Source: a virus
Direction: 5' to 3' (one strand)
IMG/VR virus record: IMGVR_UViG_3300046715_000106
Span: 1 to 52,704 of that record
DNA length: 52,704 bases
Positions 4,143-29,106 of this stretch are shown piece after piece (within the stretch, counting starts at the first letter, position 1; each line of letters starts with the position of its first letter). Both the position numbers and the translations under genes were made by a program. The notes beneath the pieces are model-generated. The model was given only the letters and a program-made list of their open reading frames with translations. It did not search any database and was not told where the DNA came from.

Positions 4143-4595
4143 ATGGCGAAGAACACGTCGGGGATCGGCCGGGTCACGATCTTCCCGTTCATCCACGACT
4201 GGGAAACCGGCTCCCGCTGCGCCCTCGCCTACACCACCACCGACGGCGGAACGACCGCCGTGATGGGTGTGATCCCTGTCGAAGGCAACGTGCACGAGCC
4301 GGGTGACCTGTTCGCCATGGCCGGACGGCACGGGTTCATCGGGGAGTGGAAGGGCAGCCACGAGCAGCGCTGCGGCGCGTGGCTCGCTTGTACCGGCGCG
4401 GGCTCTCGGACGGTGCAGAAGGCAGGCACGATCGACGTGCCCGACGCTGGGTGGGCGCTGGACATGGCGCGGGCCGCCGACCTCGAAGGCGCCTACTACG
4501 GGCACCTGCGGGTCGCTGCCGGCCGGATCACACTCGACGACCCGGCGTTGATGGAGCGGGCTCGCGCTCTAGTGCCCCTGCCGGTGGCCGTGTAG
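4143..4595 (+). CDS. Hypothetical protein
   Basis: Encodes 150 residues from ATG at 4143, preceded by GAGAGAGG. The protein is compact and mixed alpha/beta, with Trp- and Gly-rich strands (FIHDWETGSRCALAYTTTDG) and no membrane segment or recognisable catalytic motif. It is the last rightward gene before the convergent repressor-like gene at 4662 and shares a bidirectional terminator with it. I do not recognise the family. Its position among regulators and near attP suggests lysogenic cargo. Confidence 0.6.
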   Translation: MAKNTSGIGRVTIFPFIHDWETGSRCALAYTTTDGGTTAVMGVIPVEGNVHEPGDLFAMAGRHGFIGEWKGSHEQRCGAWLACTGAGSRTVQKAGTIDVPDAGWALDMARAADLEGAYYGHLRVAAGRITLDDPALMERARALVPLPVAV

Positions 4596-4605
4596 CCGAG
4601 GTGCT

Positions 4606-4647
4606 GGCCCCGTCTGTCCGCTTCCCCCGTGGCGGATGGGCGGGGCC
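4606..4647. terminator. Bidirectional terminator between convergent genes
   Basis: GGCCCCGTCTGTCCGC (4606-4621) pairs with GCGGATGGGCGGGGCC (4632-4647) with a few mismatches around a 10-base loop. It lies between the stops of 4143-4595 (+) and 4662-4895 (-). Confidence 0.65.
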
Positions 4648-4661
4648 TCTTGCGGCCCGCT

Positions 4662-4895
4662 TCAGCGCACGAGGTCGGCGAGCGGCACGTTGAGGGCGTC
4701 GGCGATGAGGAGCAGGTCTTCCAGGTTCGGGATGCGGGTGGCGTGCTCGTATCGGTGGACCGTTTTGTGGTCGCGGCCGATGCGGTCGCCGAGCTGGACC
4801 TGCGTGAGGTTCGCCTCCTCGCGCGCTGCGCGGACGCGCGCTCCGATGACCGCACGGCGGGCTGGAACCCAGGCAGGCAACGGATCGAGTGGCAC
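4662..4895 (-). CDS. Small XRE-family repressor
   Basis: Encodes 77 residues from GTG at 4895. Almost the whole protein is an XRE HTH: VRAAREEANLTQVQLGDRIG, HKTVHRYEHATRIP, then LEDLLLIADALNVPLADLV. There is no dimerisation or cleavage domain, so it is Cro/SinR-like in size. Its promoter (-35 TTTACC and -10 TATGAT on the minus strand, 4919-4946) has the -35 inside a perfect inverted repeat, which predicts autorepression. It lies between the accessory block and attP and may control that block or integration. Confidence 0.8.
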   Translation of the reverse strand: MPLDPLPAWVPARRAVIGARVRAAREEANLTQVQLGDRIGRDHKTVHRYEHATRIPNLEDLLLIADALNVPLADLVR

Positions 4896-4918
4896 CCGCC
4901 CACGCTTGCCGCACCATG

Positions 4919-4946
4919 ATCATAAGTCTTTACCTGACCGGGTAAA
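4919..4946 (-). promoter_or_regulatory. Promoter and operator of the 4662-4895 repressor
   Basis: Read leftward, TTTACC (4941-4946 complement) and TATGAT (4919-4924 complement) are 16 bases apart and match sigma70-type -35/-10 boxes. The -35 is one arm of TTTACC-TGACCG-GGTAAA (4929-4946), a perfect 6+6+6 inverted repeat. Binding of the encoded XRE protein there would block RNA polymerase. The site is strikingly AT-rich for this genome. Confidence 0.65.
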
Positions 4947-5087
4947 TTTAAGGATCTTGAACCGGGGAAACTGACCGATGCCGCACCATCGCACGTCAGA
5001 GTATGGACCGCGGCCGTGAAGCGGTCGCCGGGTGTACGCGTCTCCACCCGATCCGGCCGTTAGACGCTAAGACTCGGTCAAAGCGTC

Positions 5088-5117
5088 CCGCCCCGGAGGT
5101 GTTCACCTCCGGGGCGG
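5088..5117. terminator. Strong hairpin upstream of attP
   Basis: CCGCCCCGGAGGT and ACCTCCGGGGCGG form a perfect 13-base-pair stem with a GTTC loop. It lies in the 730-base gene-free interval 4896-5626. It probably insulates the attP region from rightward readthrough, or terminates host transcription after integration. Confidence 0.7.
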
Positions 5118-5133
5118 TCTACGTTGTACGTCA

Positions 5134-5168
5134 AGAGGCCCTCACCGACATATCCGGCGAGGGCCTCT
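5134..5168. terminator. Hairpin in attP interval
   Basis: AGAGGCCCTC (5134-5143) pairs with GAGGGCCTCT (5159-5168), with partial inner pairing. It is one of three hairpins in tandem (5088, 5134, 5365) on the left of the attP core. Confidence 0.6.
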
Positions 5169-23530: not shown

Positions 23531-23914
23531 TCATGATGCCCACTCCTCCCGGTATCCAGGACGGTCAGCGTACGCCGACGCGAGCAGGCGCACCGCGGTG
23601 ATGCCGCTCGGGTTGGTCTCCAGGCACAGGCCTGCGGCGATCTCGTCGGCGTCGTGGCAGCATCCCCACTCGCCGTCGATCTTCGCCTCGTAGATGAACA
23701 CCTCGTCGAGCATCTTCCGCTTGGCGTCGATCTCGCGCAGCACCCGAGCCGGATCATGACGGGCCATGTGGGCGAGGACTTCCACGCCGAGGTGCGGGCC
23801 GTAGATGGCGATGTCGCGCTCGGCCCACTTGCCGTCGCCCGAGCAGGCGCGCGCTACCCGCTCGTCCTCGTCGAGTTGGGCCGTCAGCCACTGCACAAGA
23901 TCCACGCCGCTCAC
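23531..23914 (-). CDS. DUF6221-like hypothetical protein
   Basis: Encodes 127 residues. It shows the pattern of a common Streptomyces family: DLVQWLTAQLDEDERVARAC at the start, HMARHDPARVLREIDAKRKM in the middle, a Cys/His pair (GCCHDADEIAAGLC) and a C-terminal ADRPGYREEW. The function of the family is unknown; it is common on actinobacterial chromosomes and mobile elements. It is the distal gene of a leftward pair with the ribbon-helix-helix protein (overlap at 23911). Confidence 0.7.
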   Translation of the reverse strand: MSGVDLVQWLTAQLDEDERVARACSGDGKWAERDIAIYGPHLGVEVLAHMARHDPARVLREIDAKRKMLDEVFIYEAKIDGEWGCCHDADEIAAGLCLETNPSGITAVRLLASAYADRPGYREEWAS

Positions 23915-24123
23915 TCCTCAGCACCATCCGACTCAGGCGCCTCCCACACGTTCCGGGCAGGACGCTCGGGCATCCGCGCACCCGGCGTACGCAGGTACCA
24001 AGCGATGAACTCCCTGATCACCGTGGCCCGATCAGTGCCCAACGCCTTCGCCGCTGCGTCGAAGTCGTACCACTCATCGCCGATACGGATCTGGCGAGCA
24101 GGGGTCTTCGGCGCGTTTGGCAT
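23911..24123 (-). CDS. Ribbon-helix-helix-like DNA-binding protein
   Basis: Encodes 70 residues from ATG at 24123. Residues about 7-45 show the RHH pattern: a basic strand (ARQIRIGDEWYDF), helix A (DAAAKALGTD) and helix B (RATVIREFIAWYLR). RHH dimers bind short palindromes in arrays. Immediately upstream lie five copies of GTAGCTAC, so it is the natural candidate to bind them and to control both its own operon and the rightward cassette from 24302. Confidence 0.7.
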   Translation of the reverse strand: MPNAPKTPARQIRIGDEWYDFDAAAKALGTDRATVIREFIAWYLRTPGARMPERPARNVWEAPESDGAEE

Positions 24124-24142
24124 GCGCAAACCGTATCCGGGC

Positions 24143-24289
24143 GTAGCTACACGCGGCAATGGAAGCTCCTCTCATCGGTAGCTACACGCGTCTCGGATCG
24201 AACGGCTTGCGGTGTAGCTACACCTCACTCTAAGGTGTAGCTACACCTCCAATCAAGGCGGTGCAATCCAACGGGGTGTAGCTACACCC
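24143..24289. promoter_or_regulatory. Five-copy GTAGCTAC operator array
   Basis: GTAGCTAC occurs at 24143, 24178, 24214, 24238 and 24278. The last three are extended palindromes GGTGTAGCTACACC, and the rightmost is GGGTGTAGCTACACCC (16 bases). Centres are 35, 36, 23 and 41 bases apart. The array fills the gap between the divergent genes 23911-24123 and 24302-24451. Such iterated palindromes are typical of cooperative repressor operators or plasmid iterons/centromere-like sites. Confidence 0.85.
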
Positions 24290-24301: not shown

Positions 24302-24451
24302 GTGACCGCAGAACCCGAGCCGGACCTCACGCCGCAGCCGAACCAGATCCTCGCCGCACCCGCCACCGTGCAGGCCTGCCAGCAGGACTACGCGGCCGGC
24401 GCCGACGTCCGCCAGACCATGGCCGACCAGGAAGCGAGGGCGCAGCGCTGA
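24302..24451 (+). CDS. Very small hypothetical protein, first gene of cassette
   Basis: Encodes 49 residues from GTG at 24302, preceded by GAGGGGGAGC, a strong ribosome binding site. It has a Pro/Glu N-terminus and the helical segment VQACQQDYAAGADVRQTMAD. Its stop overlaps the ATG of the next gene. Unknown function; the strong site directly behind the operator array argues that it is real. Confidence 0.6.
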   Translation: MTAEPEPDLTPQPNQILAAPATVQACQQDYAAGADVRQTMADQEARAQR

Positions 24452-24648
24452 TGAGCTTCCTCGGACGGATCTTCGGCGGCGGCAACGACCGCGAGCTCGC
24501 CGAAACGAAGTACGCCGGGCGTGAGTCCGCCACCGCCAGCGCCGCCCGCGGCCGCCGCCAAGGCCACAAGCGCAGCGGCGCCACCAAGGCCGCCCGCGCC
24601 GGCCAGTCCTGGGAGGACAAGTACTTCCACGACCACGGCGGCTACTGA
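24451..24648 (+). CDS. Small basic hypothetical protein
   Basis: Encodes 65 residues. It has a hydrophobic N-terminus with glycines (MSFLGRIFGGGNDRE), a basic middle (AARGRRQGHKRSGATKAARA) and the C-terminal WEDKYFHDHGGY. It is coupled to the preceding gene and closed by a strong terminator at 24662. Function unknown. Confidence 0.6.
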   Translation: MSFLGRIFGGGNDRELAETKYAGRESATASAARGRRQGHKRSGATKAARAGQSWEDKYFHDHGGY

Positions 24649-24661
24649 CCACCACCAACCA

Positions 24662-24698
24662 CCGGGCCCGTGCTGTCCACCCCCCAGCACGGGCCCGG
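24662..24698. terminator. Strong hairpin terminator
   Basis: CCGGGCCCGTGCTG (24662-24675) pairs perfectly with CAGCACGGGCCCGG (24685-24698) around a 9-base loop, with a pyrimidine run downstream. It limits readthrough from the operator-proximal genes into the lipoprotein gene. Confidence 0.75.
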
Positions 24699-24724
24699 CC
24701 CCTTCTTCCGAGAGGCACCACCCC

Positions 24725-25066
24725 ATGAAGATCCGCCGTATCACCGTCGCCCTGCTCGCCGCCGCCGCGTTCGCGCTCACCGCCTGCGGCCACAGCAGCC
24801 CGCCCGCCAGCACCAGCAGCGCCACCACCACCGTCGCGCCCGAGCCCACGCCGACACCCGAGCTCACCCCCGACGACATGACCGACGCCATCGTCGACAT
24901 CACCTGGGGCCAGACCAGCGAGGCCGACAAGGACGACCTGTGCGCAGGCATCGCGCTCCTCGGCACCGACTGGGCTGCCGAGCAGCTGGCCATCGGAGGC
25001 GGCGACGACAGCCTCGACTGGGACCGGGCCGCCGTCCTCTACGAAGCGAAGTGCAACGCGCGCTGA
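24725..25066 (+). CDS. Secreted lipoprotein
   Basis: Encodes 113 residues from ATG at 24725. The signal peptide has a KIRR n-region, a hydrophobic core and the lipobox ALTAC with Cys at about residue 21. A Ser/Thr/Pro-rich linker follows, then a small acidic domain with two Cys (about 70 and 110) that could form a disulfide. Phage-encoded lipoproteins expressed from lysogens often block superinfection. A second one is at 28286-28738. Confidence 0.8.
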   Translation: MKIRRITVALLAAAAFALTACGHSSPPASTSSATTTVAPEPTPTPELTPDDMTDAIVDITWGQTSEADKDDLCAGIALLGTDWAAEQLAIGGGDDSLDWDRAAVLYEAKCNAR

Positions 25067-25110
25067 CCCGCCATCCGTTCGCCACCCTCGCCGCCACCCA
25101 GGAGCTCTTC

Positions 25111-25578
25111 ATGACCACGCCGCCCGCCGTACTCGAACAGCGCCGCGCCACCGTGCGCCAACTGCACGCGGCCGGCCACTCCAACCGCGCCATCGCGCGC
25201 CAGCTCGGCGTCAGCAAGGACGCCGTGGCGCGCGACCTGCGAGCCACCGAGCCACCCCCCGGTGAGCCGCAGGCCGCGCCGGACGCGCCACCCGCCGAGA
25301 CGGCTGTGCACGCCACCAGCGAGCCGGACCGAGCCACGCCCGCGCCGCCCATCCCGACCAGCGGCAACCCAGTGAAACCGTGGCTCGTCCACGACATGGA
25401 CCCGCGGCTCGTCCAGGACCTCAACATCCTCATCGACCCGCGCACCGGCCGCCTGCCCGCGCCACTGGAGCGCGCCATCAGCATCGCCGCCGCGGCCCGG
25501 CGCGCCGCCTGGCGCGGCAGCGAGTCGAGCCAGGCGCGCGACGACCGCGCCACCGCGAGCCAGGGCGGCGCGCGATGA
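25111..25578 (+). CDS. HTH protein of the membrane-protein cassette
   Basis: Encodes 155 residues from ATG at 25111 with AGGAGCTC upstream. Residues about 8-45 form an HTH of resolvase/HTH_38 type: RRATVRQLHAAGHSNRAIAR, QLGVSKDAVARDL. A Pro/Ala linker follows, then a helical C-terminus (DPRLVQDLNILIDPRTGRLP). In Streptomyces integrative conjugative elements such HTH proteins accompany spread genes. It overlaps the next gene by four bases. Confidence 0.65.
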   Translation: MTTPPAVLEQRRATVRQLHAAGHSNRAIARQLGVSKDAVARDLRATEPPPGEPQAAPDAPPAETAVHATSEPDRATPAPPIPTSGNPVKPWLVHDMDPRLVQDLNILIDPRTGRLPAPLERAISIAAAARRAAWRGSESSQARDDRATASQGGAR

Positions 25579-26168
25579 GCGACCAGAAGCCGGGCGCAGA
25601 CGAGCTCCGGATGCGCGGCATCCTCCGCAGGCGCGGTGTCGGGTATGACGCCGGACCCCCTGCTGTCCCACCGGCCCTGCCCGACGGGTACGAGCCCGCG
25701 CAGGCCGACGCCGACTGGTGGGACGACCTCTACGACGAGGACGACCCCGGGCCCGCAGAAGGGGAGGAGCCCGCGGCGACGGACGCTGCCCCGTCCGGGC
25801 CCGGCTGGTGGCAGACGCAGCCCAACTACTACCCGCGCCCCCACATGCCGGCCGCCCTCACCCGCACCCGCGACCGCGCCGACGCCGCGCTCAGCCCCCG
25901 CACCCGCAAGCTCCTGTACAACGCGTCCGCGGCCGGGGCCGGTTGGGTCCTCGGCCTCTACGACCAGCTCGCCCACGCGATCGCGGACTGCGGCCAGCAG
26001 TACAGCATCAGCGGCGCCCTCACCCTCGGCATTGGCGCCTGCCTCCTCATCGCCCACGTGTGGGACCGGCGCACCCGCCACTGGTGGCCCGGCATCGCCT
26101 GGGTCGCCCGCATCCCGCTTGCCACCGCCCTCACTGCGCTCGCCCTGTGGGCGCCCGCGTCAGCCTGA
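25575..26168 (+). CDS. Polytopic membrane protein (Spd-like candidate)
   Basis: Encodes 197 residues. The first 110 residues are soluble, acidic and Trp-rich (ADWWDDLYDEDD). The C-terminal half has two or three membrane helices (SGALTLGIGACLLIAHVW; WVARIPLATALTALALW). The signature LSPRTRKLLYNASAAGAGW with HVWDRRTRHWWPG recalls membrane proteins of Streptomyces conjugative elements, which support plasmid spread through mycelium. No TraB-type translocase is present here, so transfer itself is not implied. Assignment is from memory of the family and tentative. Confidence 0.55.
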   Translation: MSDQKPGADELRMRGILRRRGVGYDAGPPAVPPALPDGYEPAQADADWWDDLYDEDDPGPAEGEEPAATDAAPSGPGWWQTQPNYYPRPHMPAALTRTRDRADAALSPRTRKLLYNASAAGAGWVLGLYDQLAHAIADCGQQYSISGALTLGIGACLLIAHVWDRRTRHWWPGIAWVARIPLATALTALALWAPASA

Positions 26169-26181
26169 ACAGGGGAAAACT

Positions 26182-26694
26182 ATGTTCACGCACATCATCG
26201 CCGCCGCCCCCGCCATCAGCGTGGAAGGCGGACGCATCCTCGGCTCGGTCGGCGCGGGCGGTATCGCGACCGCGCTCACCGTGATCCTCGTCGCCGGGAT
26301 CCGCGAGCCGAAGGGTGGTGGAGGCGCCGGCCCGGGCGGCGGCGGGGGTGGCGGGAAGAAGGGCCGCATCCGCAAGCGGCTGACCAGCGACCAAGCCCAG
26401 TGGACGGGTGTCGCCGCGGGCACGTTCTACATGACCGCCGGGTCCATCTGGACGGTCGGCAAGAACCTCTCCGACGCGTTCGCCACCGTCTTCACCGGCG
26501 GCGGGTTCGGCACGGCGGGCATGGGCGCGGTCAGCCTGCTGCTCGCGGCGCTCATGTACTTCCGTGAGCTGGCCCCGGCGAAGGCTGCGTTCGTGGGCGT
26601 GTTGGCGGCGGGGGTGTGGTCGCAGGCGGGCGGGATTTGGGGTCTGCCGCAGGCGTTGATCCTCACCGGGGCGCATGCGGTGGGCGCCATCTAA
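26182..26694 (+). CDS. Polytopic membrane protein with Gly-rich loop (Spd-like candidate)
   Basis: Encodes 170 residues from ATG at 26182 with AGGGG upstream. About four hydrophobic helices: one N-terminal (ILGSVGAGGIATALTVILVA), then a Gly-rich basic loop (about 48-70), then three near the C-terminus (WTGVAAGTFYMTAGSIW; MGAVSLLLAALMYF; AAFVGVLAAGVWSQAGGIWG). The arrangement resembles small integral membrane proteins of the Streptomyces spd loci. It overlaps the next gene by one base. Confidence 0.55.
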   Translation: MFTHIIAAAPAISVEGGRILGSVGAGGIATALTVILVAGIREPKGGGGAGPGGGGGGGKKGRIRKRLTSDQAQWTGVAAGTFYMTAGSIWTVGKNLSDAFATVFTGGGFGTAGMGAVSLLLAALMYFRELAPAKAAFVGVLAAGVWSQAGGIWGLPQALILTGAHAVGAI

Positions 26695-27353
26695 TGAAGA
26701 TCATTACGAAGGCAGGGGAGCGGCTCCCCCAATGGCTGGCCACCGAGATCCGGCCCGTCCTCGCATTCACCGGAGCAGGCCGCGCCCTCGTGACCGGGTC
26801 CCGGATCCTCACCCGCCGCGGATGGGACGCCCTCAGCGAACGCCTCTACGGGTGGGAAAAGTACGGGGCCCTGGCGTTCACCGGATACGCGGCCGTCTAC
26901 ACCGGCGGCCACGCCCCGCACATCGCACGCTTCGTCATCCCCGCGGCCGCCGTCGTCTGGTGTGTCGCCGCATGGTGGGTGGCCCCGCCCGTTGTGCAGC
27001 CGGCCGTCGAGGACACCGAACCGGAACCCGACGAGCAGCCCGGCGCCAGCGACCCCCAAGGGGTGTACGAGGCCACCCTCGAATGGATCTGGCAACAGAT
27101 CGGCGACGCCCAAGGCGTACACCTCCGCGACCTCCTCGCCCACGCCCACGCCCACGGCATGTTCGAGGACCTGGAAGTGACCGACCTCAAGGGCCACTTG
27201 GAGCGGTGGGCGATCCCCATCCGCAAGCGCTGCCGAGTCCGCGGACTCGGGGTGACCGTCGGCATCCACCGGGACGACCTGCCAGCCCCTTCCCGCCCCT
27301 CCCCCGGGCGAGAGGCCCAAGACCCCCCGGAATCTGAACTACACGCTGGGTGA
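26694..27353 (+). CDS. Membrane protein with cytosolic C-terminal domain (Spd-like candidate)
   Basis: Encodes 219 residues. One or two membrane helices at about 55-105 (ALAFTGYAAVYTGGHA; FVIPAAAVVWCVAAWWV) are followed by an acidic linker and a soluble domain (GVYEATLEWIWQQIGDAQGV; GHLERWAIPIRKRCRVRG) that looks like a small winged-helix or DNA/protein interaction domain. Third of three consecutive membrane proteins, consistent with a membrane complex. Conjugative-element relatives are suspected but not proven here. Confidence 0.55.
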   Translation: MKIITKAGERLPQWLATEIRPVLAFTGAGRALVTGSRILTRRGWDALSERLYGWEKYGALAFTGYAAVYTGGHAPHIARFVIPAAAVVWCVAAWWVAPPVVQPAVEDTEPEPDEQPGASDPQGVYEATLEWIWQQIGDAQGVHLRDLLAHAHAHGMFEDLEVTDLKGHLERWAIPIRKRCRVRGLGVTVGIHRDDLPAPSRPSPGREAQDPPESELHAG

Positions 27354-27417
27354 CCTGCGAAACCACACCCCGACTACGCCCCGACTACAGGGGCCGACCA
27401 CAGGACGGAGGCCCGGG

Positions 27418-27669
27418 ATGCCGTACGTGTACCGCTGCCGGAAGTGCCGCGCATCAAGCCCCCCGGGCCCCCGAAGAACCGCCGAGGAGTACCGGCAGGA
27501 GCACCGCGACGAGAGGCACGGCGGGCTCGTCCCGCGCGGCGAAGAGATCGTGCGGGTACCAGGGAGCACCCCGAATCCGGACGGCAGATACGTCAGCACG
27601 GGTGGGCTCCTCGGTCTGCTCGGTCTGCTCGCGGTCGCCGAGTTCCTGGCGCGGGTCCTCGGCCGGTGA
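27418..27669 (+). CDS. Zinc-ribbon plus membrane-anchor small protein
   Basis: Encodes 83 residues from ATG at 27418. The N-terminus PYVYRCRKCRASSP has a C-x2-C ribbon half, with a His further on (QEHRDERHGG). The C-terminal 20 residues are a hydrophobic helix (GGLLGLLGLLAVAEFLARVL), giving a tail-anchored topology. Similar MPYEYRC-type small proteins are found in Streptomyces mobile elements, which fits the preceding membrane genes. Confidence 0.6.
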   Translation: MPYVYRCRKCRASSPPGPRRTAEEYRQEHRDERHGGLVPRGEEIVRVPGSTPNPDGRYVSTGGLLGLLGLLAVAEFLARVLGR

Positions 27670-27735
27670 CCGGTTGCCCGGACCGCCTGCACCCGCGGGC
27701 GGTGCGGGGAGCCAGGCACCGCCTGAACTCCACAC

Positions 27736-27779
27736 CCCGGGACGGCTGTTCCTCCGCCAAGACGTCCAGCCGCCCCGGG
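27736..27779. terminator. Intergenic hairpin
   Basis: CCCGGGACGGCTG pairs with CAGCCGCCCCGGG with one bulge, around an 18-base loop. It lies in the 143-base gap between 27418-27669 and 27813-27959. Confidence 0.5.
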
Positions 27780-27812
27780 CCCATCCCGATCACACGAGAC
27801 AGGAGCGCCATC

Positions 27813-27959
27813 ATGGCACTCGGCTGGACGACCAACCCCGAGCCGGACGACGAGCGGCTGCAAGGACACGAGACCGTCTACCAGGCAAGCCGCGGCGGGC
27901 ACTTCCCCGTCGAGGAGAAGCCCGTACCGGGAACACCGCAGGAGCCGCAGCAGAGTTGA
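27813..27959 (+). CDS. Very small hypothetical protein
   Basis: Encodes 48 residues from ATG at 27813 with AGGAGCG upstream. It is hydrophilic and acidic (WTTNPEPDDERLQGHETVYQ). It is framed by hairpins at 27736 and 27997, so it is a separate small transcription unit. Function unknown. Confidence 0.5.
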   Translation: MALGWTTNPEPDDERLQGHETVYQASRGGHFPVEEKPVPGTPQEPQQS

Positions 27960-27996
27960 CGCGCCCTGCCACACTGGCGGCAGGTCGTCAGTGCCA

Positions 27997-28031
27997 GGCC
28001 CCGCCACGCAACCCCCCGTCGTGGCGGGGCC
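27997..28031. terminator. Perfect hairpin after 27959
   Basis: GGCCCCGCCACG pairs perfectly with CGTGGCGGGGCC around an 11-base loop, between 27813-27959 and 28064-28213. Confidence 0.65.
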
Positions 28032-28063
28032 GTCCCACACCAGCACAGCGATAGGACAAGACC

Positions 28064-28213
28064 ATGACGGACAACAGGCCGGCCCGCCGCACGCACACCC
28101 GCCTCGCCGACATCGATCCGACCGCGCAGTCGACGGTGCGCTCGGCTGGCAGGGTGCGGGACATCCCGGGCCGCCGGCCCGCCAAGCCGATCACCTTCGA
28201 CTCGGCGCTGTAG
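28064..28213 (+). CDS. Very small basic hypothetical protein
   Basis: Encodes 49 residues from ATG at 28064, preceded by GATAGGACAAG. It is Arg-rich (RPARRTHTRLADIDPTAQST) and ends in KPITFDSAL. Isolated between two hairpins. Coding status rests mainly on the ribosome binding site and frame composition. Confidence 0.45.
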   Translation: MTDNRPARRTHTRLADIDPTAQSTVRSAGRVRDIPGRRPAKPITFDSAL

Positions 28214-28285: not shown

Positions 28286-28738
28286 TCAGTTCTTCGCCTC
28301 GTCAGCCTCCAAGCTGAGCGTCAACGCCGACCCGCCCGCCAGGATGGTCCGCGCATCGTCAGGACACGGCGACCCCTCGATGCTGGCGTTCTCATCGCCG
28401 AGACACTCGTGCTTGGTGTACGCCTCGACAGCATCGTTGACCTTGCCGATCTCCGCGACAGTCCGCGGGTACGAGTCCTTCCCCCCAGCCTCCGTGACCG
28501 CCTGCTCCAGATCGGTGACGGCGAGAGCAATGTCCGTGAGGTGGTCGGCGCAGGCCTCGTCGCCGGCCTGGTTGCAGATCCCGGTGTCGGCTTTGGCCGC
28601 GGCTTCGAGCTTCGGTGCCCACTCCGCGGCGAGGCTGCTGCTGCTCGGGCTGGGCTTGCTGTCGCTGCCGTTGCTGCTGCTGGTGCATGCGGTGGCGGCG
28701 GCGAGGATGAGCGCGGCGGCGATGGCGTGTCTGTGCAT
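28286..28738 (-). CDS. Secreted lipoprotein
   Basis: Encodes 150 residues from ATG at 28738; upstream in-frame starts add a Pro/Arg leader and have no site, whereas AAGGGGGG precedes this ATG. The signal peptide (HAIAAALILAAATAC) ends in a lipobox with Cys at about residue 18, followed by a Ser-rich linker and a helical domain with four Cys, two of them in a GICNQAGDEACADHL context, probably disulfide-bonded outside the cell. It is leftward and probably expressed in lysogens. Superinfection exclusion is a reasonable but unproven role. Confidence 0.8.
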   Translation of the reverse strand: MHRHAIAAALILAAATACTSSSNGSDSKPSPSSSSLAAEWAPKLEAAAKADTGICNQAGDEACADHLTDIALAVTDLEQAVTEAGGKDSYPRTVAEIGKVNDAVEAYTKHECLGDENASIEGSPCPDDARTILAGGSALTLSLEADEAKN

Positions 28739-28854: not shown

Positions 28855-29106
28855 TCATGCGGGGAGTTGGGCGTCGCAGTCCGGGCAGAGGTAGGCCAGC
28901 AGCTCGCCCGTGACGACGCTGCGCACCTCGGCCGGGGTGAGGTGACGGCAGGCGCCCTTCACGTACTCGGGGCGGCCGTCAATGCCGGTTACGTCGATCC
29001 ATTCCCAGCGCGGGTCGAGATCGAGGGTGGGGCCGAAGACTGCGTCGAGTATTTCCGCCCCGCGGGCCAGCTCTTGGAGCCGGGCCTGGTTCTCGGCGTC
29101 GCTCAT
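28855..29106 (-). CDS. Hypothetical protein with C-terminal Cys/His
   Basis: Encodes 83 residues. It contains WEWIDVTGIDGRPEYVKGAC, HLTPAEVRSVVTGELLAYLC and a terminal PDCDAQLP; the C...H...C-x2-C spacing resembles a small zinc site. It is the last gene of a leftward operon with 29103 and 29366 (four-base overlaps). Function unknown. Confidence 0.65.
   Translation of the reverse strand: MSDAENQARLQELARGAEILDAVFGPTLDLDPRWEWIDVTGIDGRPEYVKGACRHLTPAEVRSVVTGELLAYLCPDCDAQLPA

What the first reader, a model, noticed from the sequence alone, without database searches (positions are those of the whole stretch)
24302..28213. Conjugative-element-like membrane protein cassette inside a phage
An HTH protein, three consecutive polytopic membrane proteins with Streptomyces spread-locus style sequences, a tail-anchored zinc-ribbon protein, a lipoprotein and several tiny proteins follow the palindrome array. 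This set belongs to plasmids or integrative conjugative elements rather than siphoviruses. No TraB translocase is present. It could be a domesticated spread/exclusion system: for example a membrane complex used by the prophage for superinfection immunity or for movement along mycelium.
Basis: partly seen in the sequence, partly recalled or inferred. Interest (0 to 1): 0.75.

Follow-up and report, generated by a model that had tools for sequence, protein, structure and literature searches.

The report
Phage-borne plasmid-spread-like membrane gene cassette
This Streptomyces virus carries a set of membrane and DNA-binding genes that is also found, in the same order, in small Streptomyces plasmids and integrating elements, which suggests that viruses and plasmids share one machine for handling or moving DNA in a filamentous bacterium, although its function has not been tested.

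Summary
The cassette is real. The window is a tailed temperate Streptomyces phage. At 25575-27669 it encodes membrane proteins A, B and C and a membrane-anchored zinc finger.

A, B and C keep that order in small Streptomyces plasmids (B 58-66% identical), in three att-bounded integrating elements and in prophages. So the link to mobile-element membrane proteins holds. The statement that the set is foreign to siphoviruses does not: 29 IMG/VR contigs carry it, and VWB, Kromp and OnionKnight carry diverged versions.

A, B and C are not homologous to pIJ101 SpdA, SpdB or KilB. They resemble the pSNA1-type set instead. No TraB is present in the phages, in pSNA1 or in the integrating elements.

The main new result is that C ends in a predicted winged-helix domain that occurs in four exchangeable types. 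L035 and L036 have 99% identical B but only 30% identical winged helices, and the DNA identity drop is confined to that part of C.

The best model is a membrane complex that captures element DNA and moves or holds it at a septum or hyphal tip, powered by a host or helper translocase. This is inferred; exclusion and DNA tethering remain open rivals.

The parts
23911..24123 (-). Small divergent gene (70 aa); by eye it resembles a ribbon-helix-helix repressor and is the candidate repressor of the cassette operon
   Evidence: Sequence; no Pfam hit; cluster c24 occurs in 6 loci. The regulator role is inferred from the divergent position beside the array.
24142..24286 (.). Array of five GTAGCTAC palindromes (three as the 14-mer GGTGTAGCTACACC); candidate operator array of the cassette operon
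   Evidence: 5 exact copies, 0.08 expected in shuffles. Related phages hold other sites in the same slot, e.g. AGACCCTAGGGTCT in L031 and L053.
24302..24451 (+). Tiny protein (49 aa), homologue of VWB gp23
   Evidence: 52% identity over 44 aa, E 4e-9
24451..24648 (+). Tiny protein (65 aa), recurrent early gene of the operon in related phages
   Evidence: Cluster c10, 12 loci
24725..25066 (+). Lipoprotein (113 aa)
   Evidence: Lipobox FALTAC; cluster c26, 6 loci
25111..25578 (+). Soluble HTH protein (155 aa); most relatives have a 4-TM protein in this slot (DUF2637 in several), but in L028 this HTH gene follows a 5-TM gene
   Evidence: HTH_38 E 1.3e-5; cluster c21; no DUF2637 in the window
25575..26168 (+). 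Protein A: acidic N-terminus with DWWDxLY motif, 2-3 C-terminal TM segments with conserved DRRTRHWW loop
   Evidence: Up to 60% identity to plasmid A proteins (E 3e-42); alignment A6; topology
26182..26694 (+). Protein B: 4-TM, Gly/Ala-rich, basic cytosolic loop; the most conserved member
   Evidence: 58-66% identity to plasmid B; 29 IMG/VR contigs; dN/dS 0.13-0.17 to the nearest phages; topology
26694..27353 (+). Protein C: 2-3 TM segments then a cytosolic C-terminal winged-helix domain
   Evidence: PHROG 5650 E 1e-11; homologues in VWB and Kromp; alignment A5
27063..27302 (+). Exchangeable winged-helix domain of protein C (type I in this phage)
   Evidence: AlphaFold2 mean pLDDT 84.9, order H-E-H-H-E-E; Foldseek hits mostly winged helices but E at best 0.27; four types independent of B; DNA-level exchange
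27418..27669 (+). Membrane-anchored zinc finger (83 aa; C-x2-C...H-x4-H, one C-terminal TM segment)
   Evidence: 47.5% identity to plasmid relative, E 5e-16; follows C in most phage loci
27813..27959 (+). Small protein 'S49' (48 aa, MALxxxxP...YQASRGG...KPVPGTP), shared by phages, plasmids and integrating elements
   Evidence: 57% to OnionKnight gp61 (E 2e-14); also in L032, L055, L061, L062 and L110, L111, L117
28064..28213 (+). 49-aa peptide ending FDSAL, FxSxx-COOH-like; membership of the cassette unsure
   Evidence: Cluster c14, 8 loci; TIGR04268 E 0.005 here, 3.7e-5 in a relative, below cut-off

Best explanation
The block is a phage-borne form of a membrane-plus-DNA-binding module that Streptomyces plasmids, integrating elements and temperate siphoviruses share (pSNA1-type set: an HTH or 4-TM protein, then A, B, C, a membrane zinc finger and small proteins), probably under its own divergent repressor. 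Shown: the homology, gene order, distribution, purifying selection and exchange of the C-terminal domain of C. Inferred: A and B form a membrane assembly; the cytosolic winged helix of C, the zinc finger and the HTH protein bring the element's own DNA to it; the complex sits at septa or hyphal tips and helps excised or replicating element DNA pass into, or be held for, the next compartment. Since no ATPase is encoded in the cassette, the motor must come from the host (FtsK/SpoIIIE class) or a co-resident TraB. The exchange of the winged helix would be a change of DNA (or partner) specificity.
For: (1) Plasmid homologues: A up to 60%, B 58-66%, same order A-B-C-zinc finger-small protein. (2) Fixed order in IMG/VR contigs, mostly beside the terminase. 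(3) Three 13-14 kb att-bounded integrating elements hold integrase, replication genes, regulator and this cassette but no TraB, relaxase or capsid gene was seen in them, and pSNA1 holds Rep, GntR, an SpdA-like gene and the cassette without a P-loop translocase; in such minimal elements the cassette is the only candidate mobility function. (4) C ends in a predicted winged helix with four types unlinked to B (Spearman 0.01), exchanged at DNA level. (5) Phage-plasmid exchange: a prophage cassette (L058) has B 90% identical to that of a plasmid (CP109521). (6) Purifying selection on A, B, C and the zinc finger. (7) Known biology: Spd proteins with TraB assemble in septa and spread plasmids along mycelium (PMC5133688); SpdB2 is a DNA-binding integral membrane protein that oligomerises (PMC4170104).
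Against: No experiment on any of these proteins was found. A, B and C have no sequence similarity to the Spd proteins of pIJ101, and in PLSDB the pIJ101-type TraB plasmids and the A-B-C plasmids are different records. No motor is encoded, and published spreading depends on TraB (PMC5133688). No DNA motif shared by phages of the same C type was found. The winged-helix assignment rests on one model with weak Foldseek E-values.
Confidence: 0.4

Rival explanations
2. Membrane tether for segregation or replication: the complex anchors episomal element DNA at the membrane so that it is inherited or replicated in the growing hypha.
For: Membrane proteins with DNA-binding domains in plasmids, integrating elements and temperate phages. 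SpdA2 of pIJ101, whose homologue was called a spread protein, turned out to affect stability (PMC4170104).
Against: Several carriers integrate and so need less segregation help. A tether does not by itself need two or three polytopic proteins.
Confidence: 0.2
3. Ordinary phage lysis or morphogenesis genes (holin-like membrane proteins).
For: In L049, L057 and L060 a gene that by its sequence is an amidase lies close downstream.
Against: The same genes occur in plasmids and integrating elements without lysis or capsid genes. PHROG matches are 'unknown function', not lysis, for C and the zinc finger. In most phages the neighbours are regulators and the terminase.
Confidence: 0.03
4. Another prophage-expressed trait: a new anti-phage defence, or change of host envelope or development.
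For: Function unknown; the cassette sits beside small lipoprotein and peptide genes.
Against: No match to PADLOC models; it is found in minimal plasmids where cargo is rare.
Confidence: 0.12

Closest known systems
pSNA1-type transfer/spread region of small Streptomyces plasmids (pSNA1 NC_002149; also CP109521, CP108176, NZ_CP108620)
   Same: Homologous A, B, C, a membrane zinc finger and/or S49 in the same order; pSNA1 also lacks TraB
   Different: The plasmids use a GntR (KorA-like) regulator instead of the window's divergent gene and array; their C is often longer; pSNA1 has a DUF2637-like 4-TM + HTH protein that the window lacks
Streptomyces phages VWB (gp23-26), Kromp (gp82-86), OnionKnight (gp57-61)
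   Same: Same layout of membrane proteins; C homologous in VWB (E 3e-13) and Kromp; tiny proteins homologous to VWB gp23 and OnionKnight gp61
   Different: Their B-position proteins form another family (PHROG 16379 in Kromp and OnionKnight) with no detectable similarity to B; all three have DUF2637 proteins
Classical Spd/TraB system of pIJ101 and pSVH1 (SpdA, SpdB, KilB, SpdB2)
   Same: Membrane proteins in a repressor-controlled mobile-element operon; proposed role at septa (PMC4170104, PMC5133688)
   Different: No sequence homology of A, B, C to pIJ101 SpdA, SpdB or KilB; no TraB; pSVH1 proteins could not be compared
Actinomycete integrative and conjugative elements (AICEs)
   Same: Integrase, excisionase, Prim-Pol or DnaB-type replication, GntR, and tRNA att sites in two of the three elements carrying the cassette
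   Different: AICEs are defined by Int + Rep + FtsK-type Tra (PMC3218068); no FtsK lies within these three

Membership tests
Classical Streptomyces Spd (spread) proteins, pIJ101 type | Sequence homology to SpdA, SpdB or KilB | tested here: not met
   BLAST and hhalign of profiles A, B, C and zinc finger against all pIJ101 proteins: no match
Classical Streptomyces Spd (spread) proteins, pIJ101 type | Linkage to a TraB/FtsK translocase | tested here: not met
   No FtsK or TraB in the window or in 12 other virus records; pIJ101 control positive
Classical Streptomyces Spd (spread) proteins, pIJ101 type | Loss reduces pock size (intramycelial spread) | not testable with these tools
   Needs mating and pock assays
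pSNA1-type mobile-element membrane cassette (DUF2637/HTH-A-B-C-Zn-S49) | A, B and C homologues adjacent in this order | tested here: met
pSNA1-type mobile-element membrane cassette (DUF2637/HTH-A-B-C-Zn-S49) | Membrane zinc finger and S49 downstream | tested here: met
   27418-27669 and 27813-27959
pSNA1-type mobile-element membrane cassette (DUF2637/HTH-A-B-C-Zn-S49) | 4-TM (often DUF2637) protein with HTH in the same element | tested here: not met
   The window has only the soluble HTH protein; no PF10935 match
Pfam/PHROG/NCBIfam described families | Match of A, B or C to a curated family of known function | tested here: not met
   No Pfam or NCBIfam match over cut-off; PHROG 5650 (unknown function) for C only
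Anti-phage defence system | PADLOC model match | tested here: not met
Winged-helix DNA-binding domain (C-terminus of C) | Fold H-E-H-H-E-E | tested here: met
   AlphaFold2 pLDDT 84.9
Winged-helix DNA-binding domain (C-terminus of C) | Significant structural match to a solved winged helix | tested here: inconclusive
   Hits include Fur DNA-binding domain, BlaI and SSV1 F-112, but E 0.27 or worse
Winged-helix DNA-binding domain (C-terminus of C) | Binds DNA | not testable with these tools
   Needs EMSA or DAP-seq

The most novel reading that the evidence does not exclude
Temperate Streptomyces phages, TraB-less plasmids and small integrating elements share a membrane DNA-handling machine with a swappable DNA-recognition head, which lets phage or element DNA move between compartments of a living mycelium without virions and without its own translocase.
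Probability: 0.25. Interest if true: 0.9.

Novelty: new variant of a known kind. Interest (0 to 1): 0.68.

Why it matters
Published spreading of Streptomyces plasmids along hyphae rests on Spd proteins whose mechanism is poorly known and on TraB. A conserved homologous set in phages, TraB-less plasmids and minimal integrating elements, with an exchangeable DNA-binding domain, gives a tractable system to test what such membrane proteins do, and whether phages use them for non-lytic movement or for exclusion in a multicellular host. The held paper library has no report of such a set in phages, but that library lacks most subscription journals.

Tried and rejected
AlphaFold2 of B gave pLDDT 48 and was not used. 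HMM of the C domain against PDB sequences: the two strong hits are designed repeat proteins with no stretch passing on its own; rejected. Search for clustered 10-mers shared by phages with the same C type: none. Idea that the C domain equals the TraB C-terminus: no sequence similarity to pIJ101 TraB; not pursued. Lysis cassette: rejected because of the plasmid and integrating-element carriers. Phage B proteins as one clade: rejected by the AU test (p 1.4e-5), but long branches make the tree weak. My first family scans read 27813-27959 one base out of frame; repeated correctly without a hit. PHROG calls the protein upstream of the terminase large subunit 'RNase E', so its role as small terminase subunit is only assumed.
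Full report
What is there. The window is one whole IMG/VR virus record. PHROG matches identify an integrase, a DnaB-like helicase, terminase large subunit, portal and major head protein, so it is a temperate tailed phage. The operon of interest starts after an array of five GTAGCTAC palindromes (24143-24285; 0.08 expected), beside a divergent 70-aa gene at 23911-24123. It runs: two tiny proteins, a lipoprotein, an HTH protein, A, B, C, a membrane zinc finger and more tiny proteins. A, B and C have no Pfam or NCBIfam match over cut-off; C matches PHROG 5650 of unknown function.

Relation to plasmids. DNA and protein searches against PLSDB place A and B in a group of small Streptomyces plasmids, pSNA1 included. 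There the order GntR regulator, small protein, A, B, C, then zinc finger and/or S49 is common. In pSNA1 the gene for C is not annotated in RefSeq; the ORF at about 4638-5141 holds its C-terminal domain. Shuffled window proteins never reached E below 0.004 against the same set, whereas B reaches 1e-61. The cassette shows no homology to the SpdA, SpdB and KilB proteins of pIJ101. The plasmids with pIJ101-type TraB are different records from those with B. So 'spread-like' is justified by homology to pSNA1, which is discussed with spd plasmids in PMC3212956 and PMC4170104, not by homology to characterised Spd proteins.

Relation to phages. Twenty-nine IMG/VR contigs encode a relative of B, nearly all close. 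Wherever the contig allows, A, B and C are adjacent, and the zinc finger follows in 26 of the 29. The terminase large subunit lies within the fetched stretch in 18 of 29. Gene clusters show a shared layout: a divergent regulator, tiny proteins, a lipoprotein, a 4-TM protein from one of several families, A-B-C, zinc finger. Seven further records of 50-69 kb were read whole beside the window; all carry the cassette and none shows TraB or a relaxase. VWB, Kromp and OnionKnight carry diverged versions with DUF2637 proteins. The window and its close relatives L024-L030 (where the contig reaches that far) have the soluble HTH protein before A, except L025 and L027; the window has no DUF2637. Within Streptomyces, 34 of 150 sampled genomes have the C-terminal domain of C; across the class only 3 of 247 do.

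Minimal carriers. Three genome loci are bounded by direct repeats of 83, 64 and 65 bases (two in tRNA-Ser) and span 13-14 kb. They hold integrase, excisionase, DnaB-like or Prim-Pol replication genes, the cassette and a GntR gene. No FtsK hit lies inside them. pSNA1 has no P-loop protein of translocase size. In these elements the cassette is the only candidate for mobility. This is the strongest indirect argument for a transfer or spreading role, but they could also be moved by helpers. A prophage locus in Streptomyces sp. sk2.1 (L058), flanked by major head and tail genes, has a B that is 90% identical to the B of plasmid CP109521, so exchange between plasmids and phages has happened.

The exchangeable domain. 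In 21 phages the median identity is 81% for B, 60% for the membrane part of C and 31% for the C-terminal domain of C. The last falls into four types that do not follow B (Spearman 0.01), e.g. L035 and L036 with 99% and 30%, L038 and L042 with 97% and 18%. At the DNA level identity falls to about 45% from about codon 95 of C to its end and recovers in the zinc-finger gene where that gene is called in both. The domain is predicted as a winged helix with pLDDT 84.9. Foldseek lists many winged-helix DNA-binding proteins, none significant. B is under strong purifying selection (dN/dS about 0.13-0.17), A and the zinc finger less so, C at 0.39-0.53 within its type.

Mechanism. I infer a membrane assembly of A and B with several cytosolic DNA-binding parts (C winged helix, zinc finger, HTH protein) that recruits element DNA. 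Published work places Spd proteins with TraB in septa and assigns the motor to TraB (PMC5133688). A phage without TraB would need a host or helper motor, or the complex does something else: exclusion or tethering. I rate movement or holding of DNA 0.40, exclusion 0.25, tether for segregation or replication 0.20.

Limits. No function was tested. The pSVH1 and pJV1 Spd proteins were not available. The B tree has long branches. Gene calls are my own, made by a codon-score script. The link between VWB gp25 and a 4-TM protein next to a TraB-like ATPase in CP108176 rests on E 3e-4 and 4e-5 and is only suggestive.

Noticed in passing
window 28064-28213; L024, L026, L028-L030, L043, L044: 49-aa phage peptides ending F-[DN]-S-A-[LA] resemble the FxSxx-COOH cyclophane RiPP precursors (TIGR04268, E 3.7e-5 in L026, below cut-off). 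Whether a partner radical SAM gene is present was not checked.
   Followed up: partly
L110, L111, L117: Three att-bounded 13-14 kb integrating elements with integrase, excisionase, replication genes and this cassette but no FtsK-type Tra, outside the usual AICE definition.
   Followed up: partly
window 28855-29106 (-): An 83-aa protein shares the stretch LCPxCDAQLP with an insert in the N-terminal part of protein A of plasmid pSNA1 (and a weaker match in CP109521), as if a zinc-binding piece were free-standing in the phage.
   Followed up: no
L031 upstream of 3583; L053 upstream of 7814: A different palindrome array (AGACCCTAGGGTCT) stands in the slot where the window has GTGTAGCTACAC, beside another regulator family.
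   Followed up: no
window 24451-24648: The 65-aa gene shows dN/dS near or above 1 against most relatives, with rather low dS; this may point to an overlapping DNA or RNA constraint.
   Followed up: no
L001/L016 (pSNA1) about 4374-5141: The gene for protein C is missing from the RefSeq annotation of pSNA1, which has an opposite-strand ORF there instead.
   Followed up: partly
window 28286-28738 (-): A second lipoprotein has 75% DNA identity to genes on about 88-kb Streptomyces plasmids (NZ_CP109172, CP108822, CP108843), which might be phage-plasmids.
   Followed up: no
L017/L018 (CP109521): The 26.9-kb plasmid record reads as a head-to-tail dimer of a 13.4-kb plasmid.
   Followed up: no
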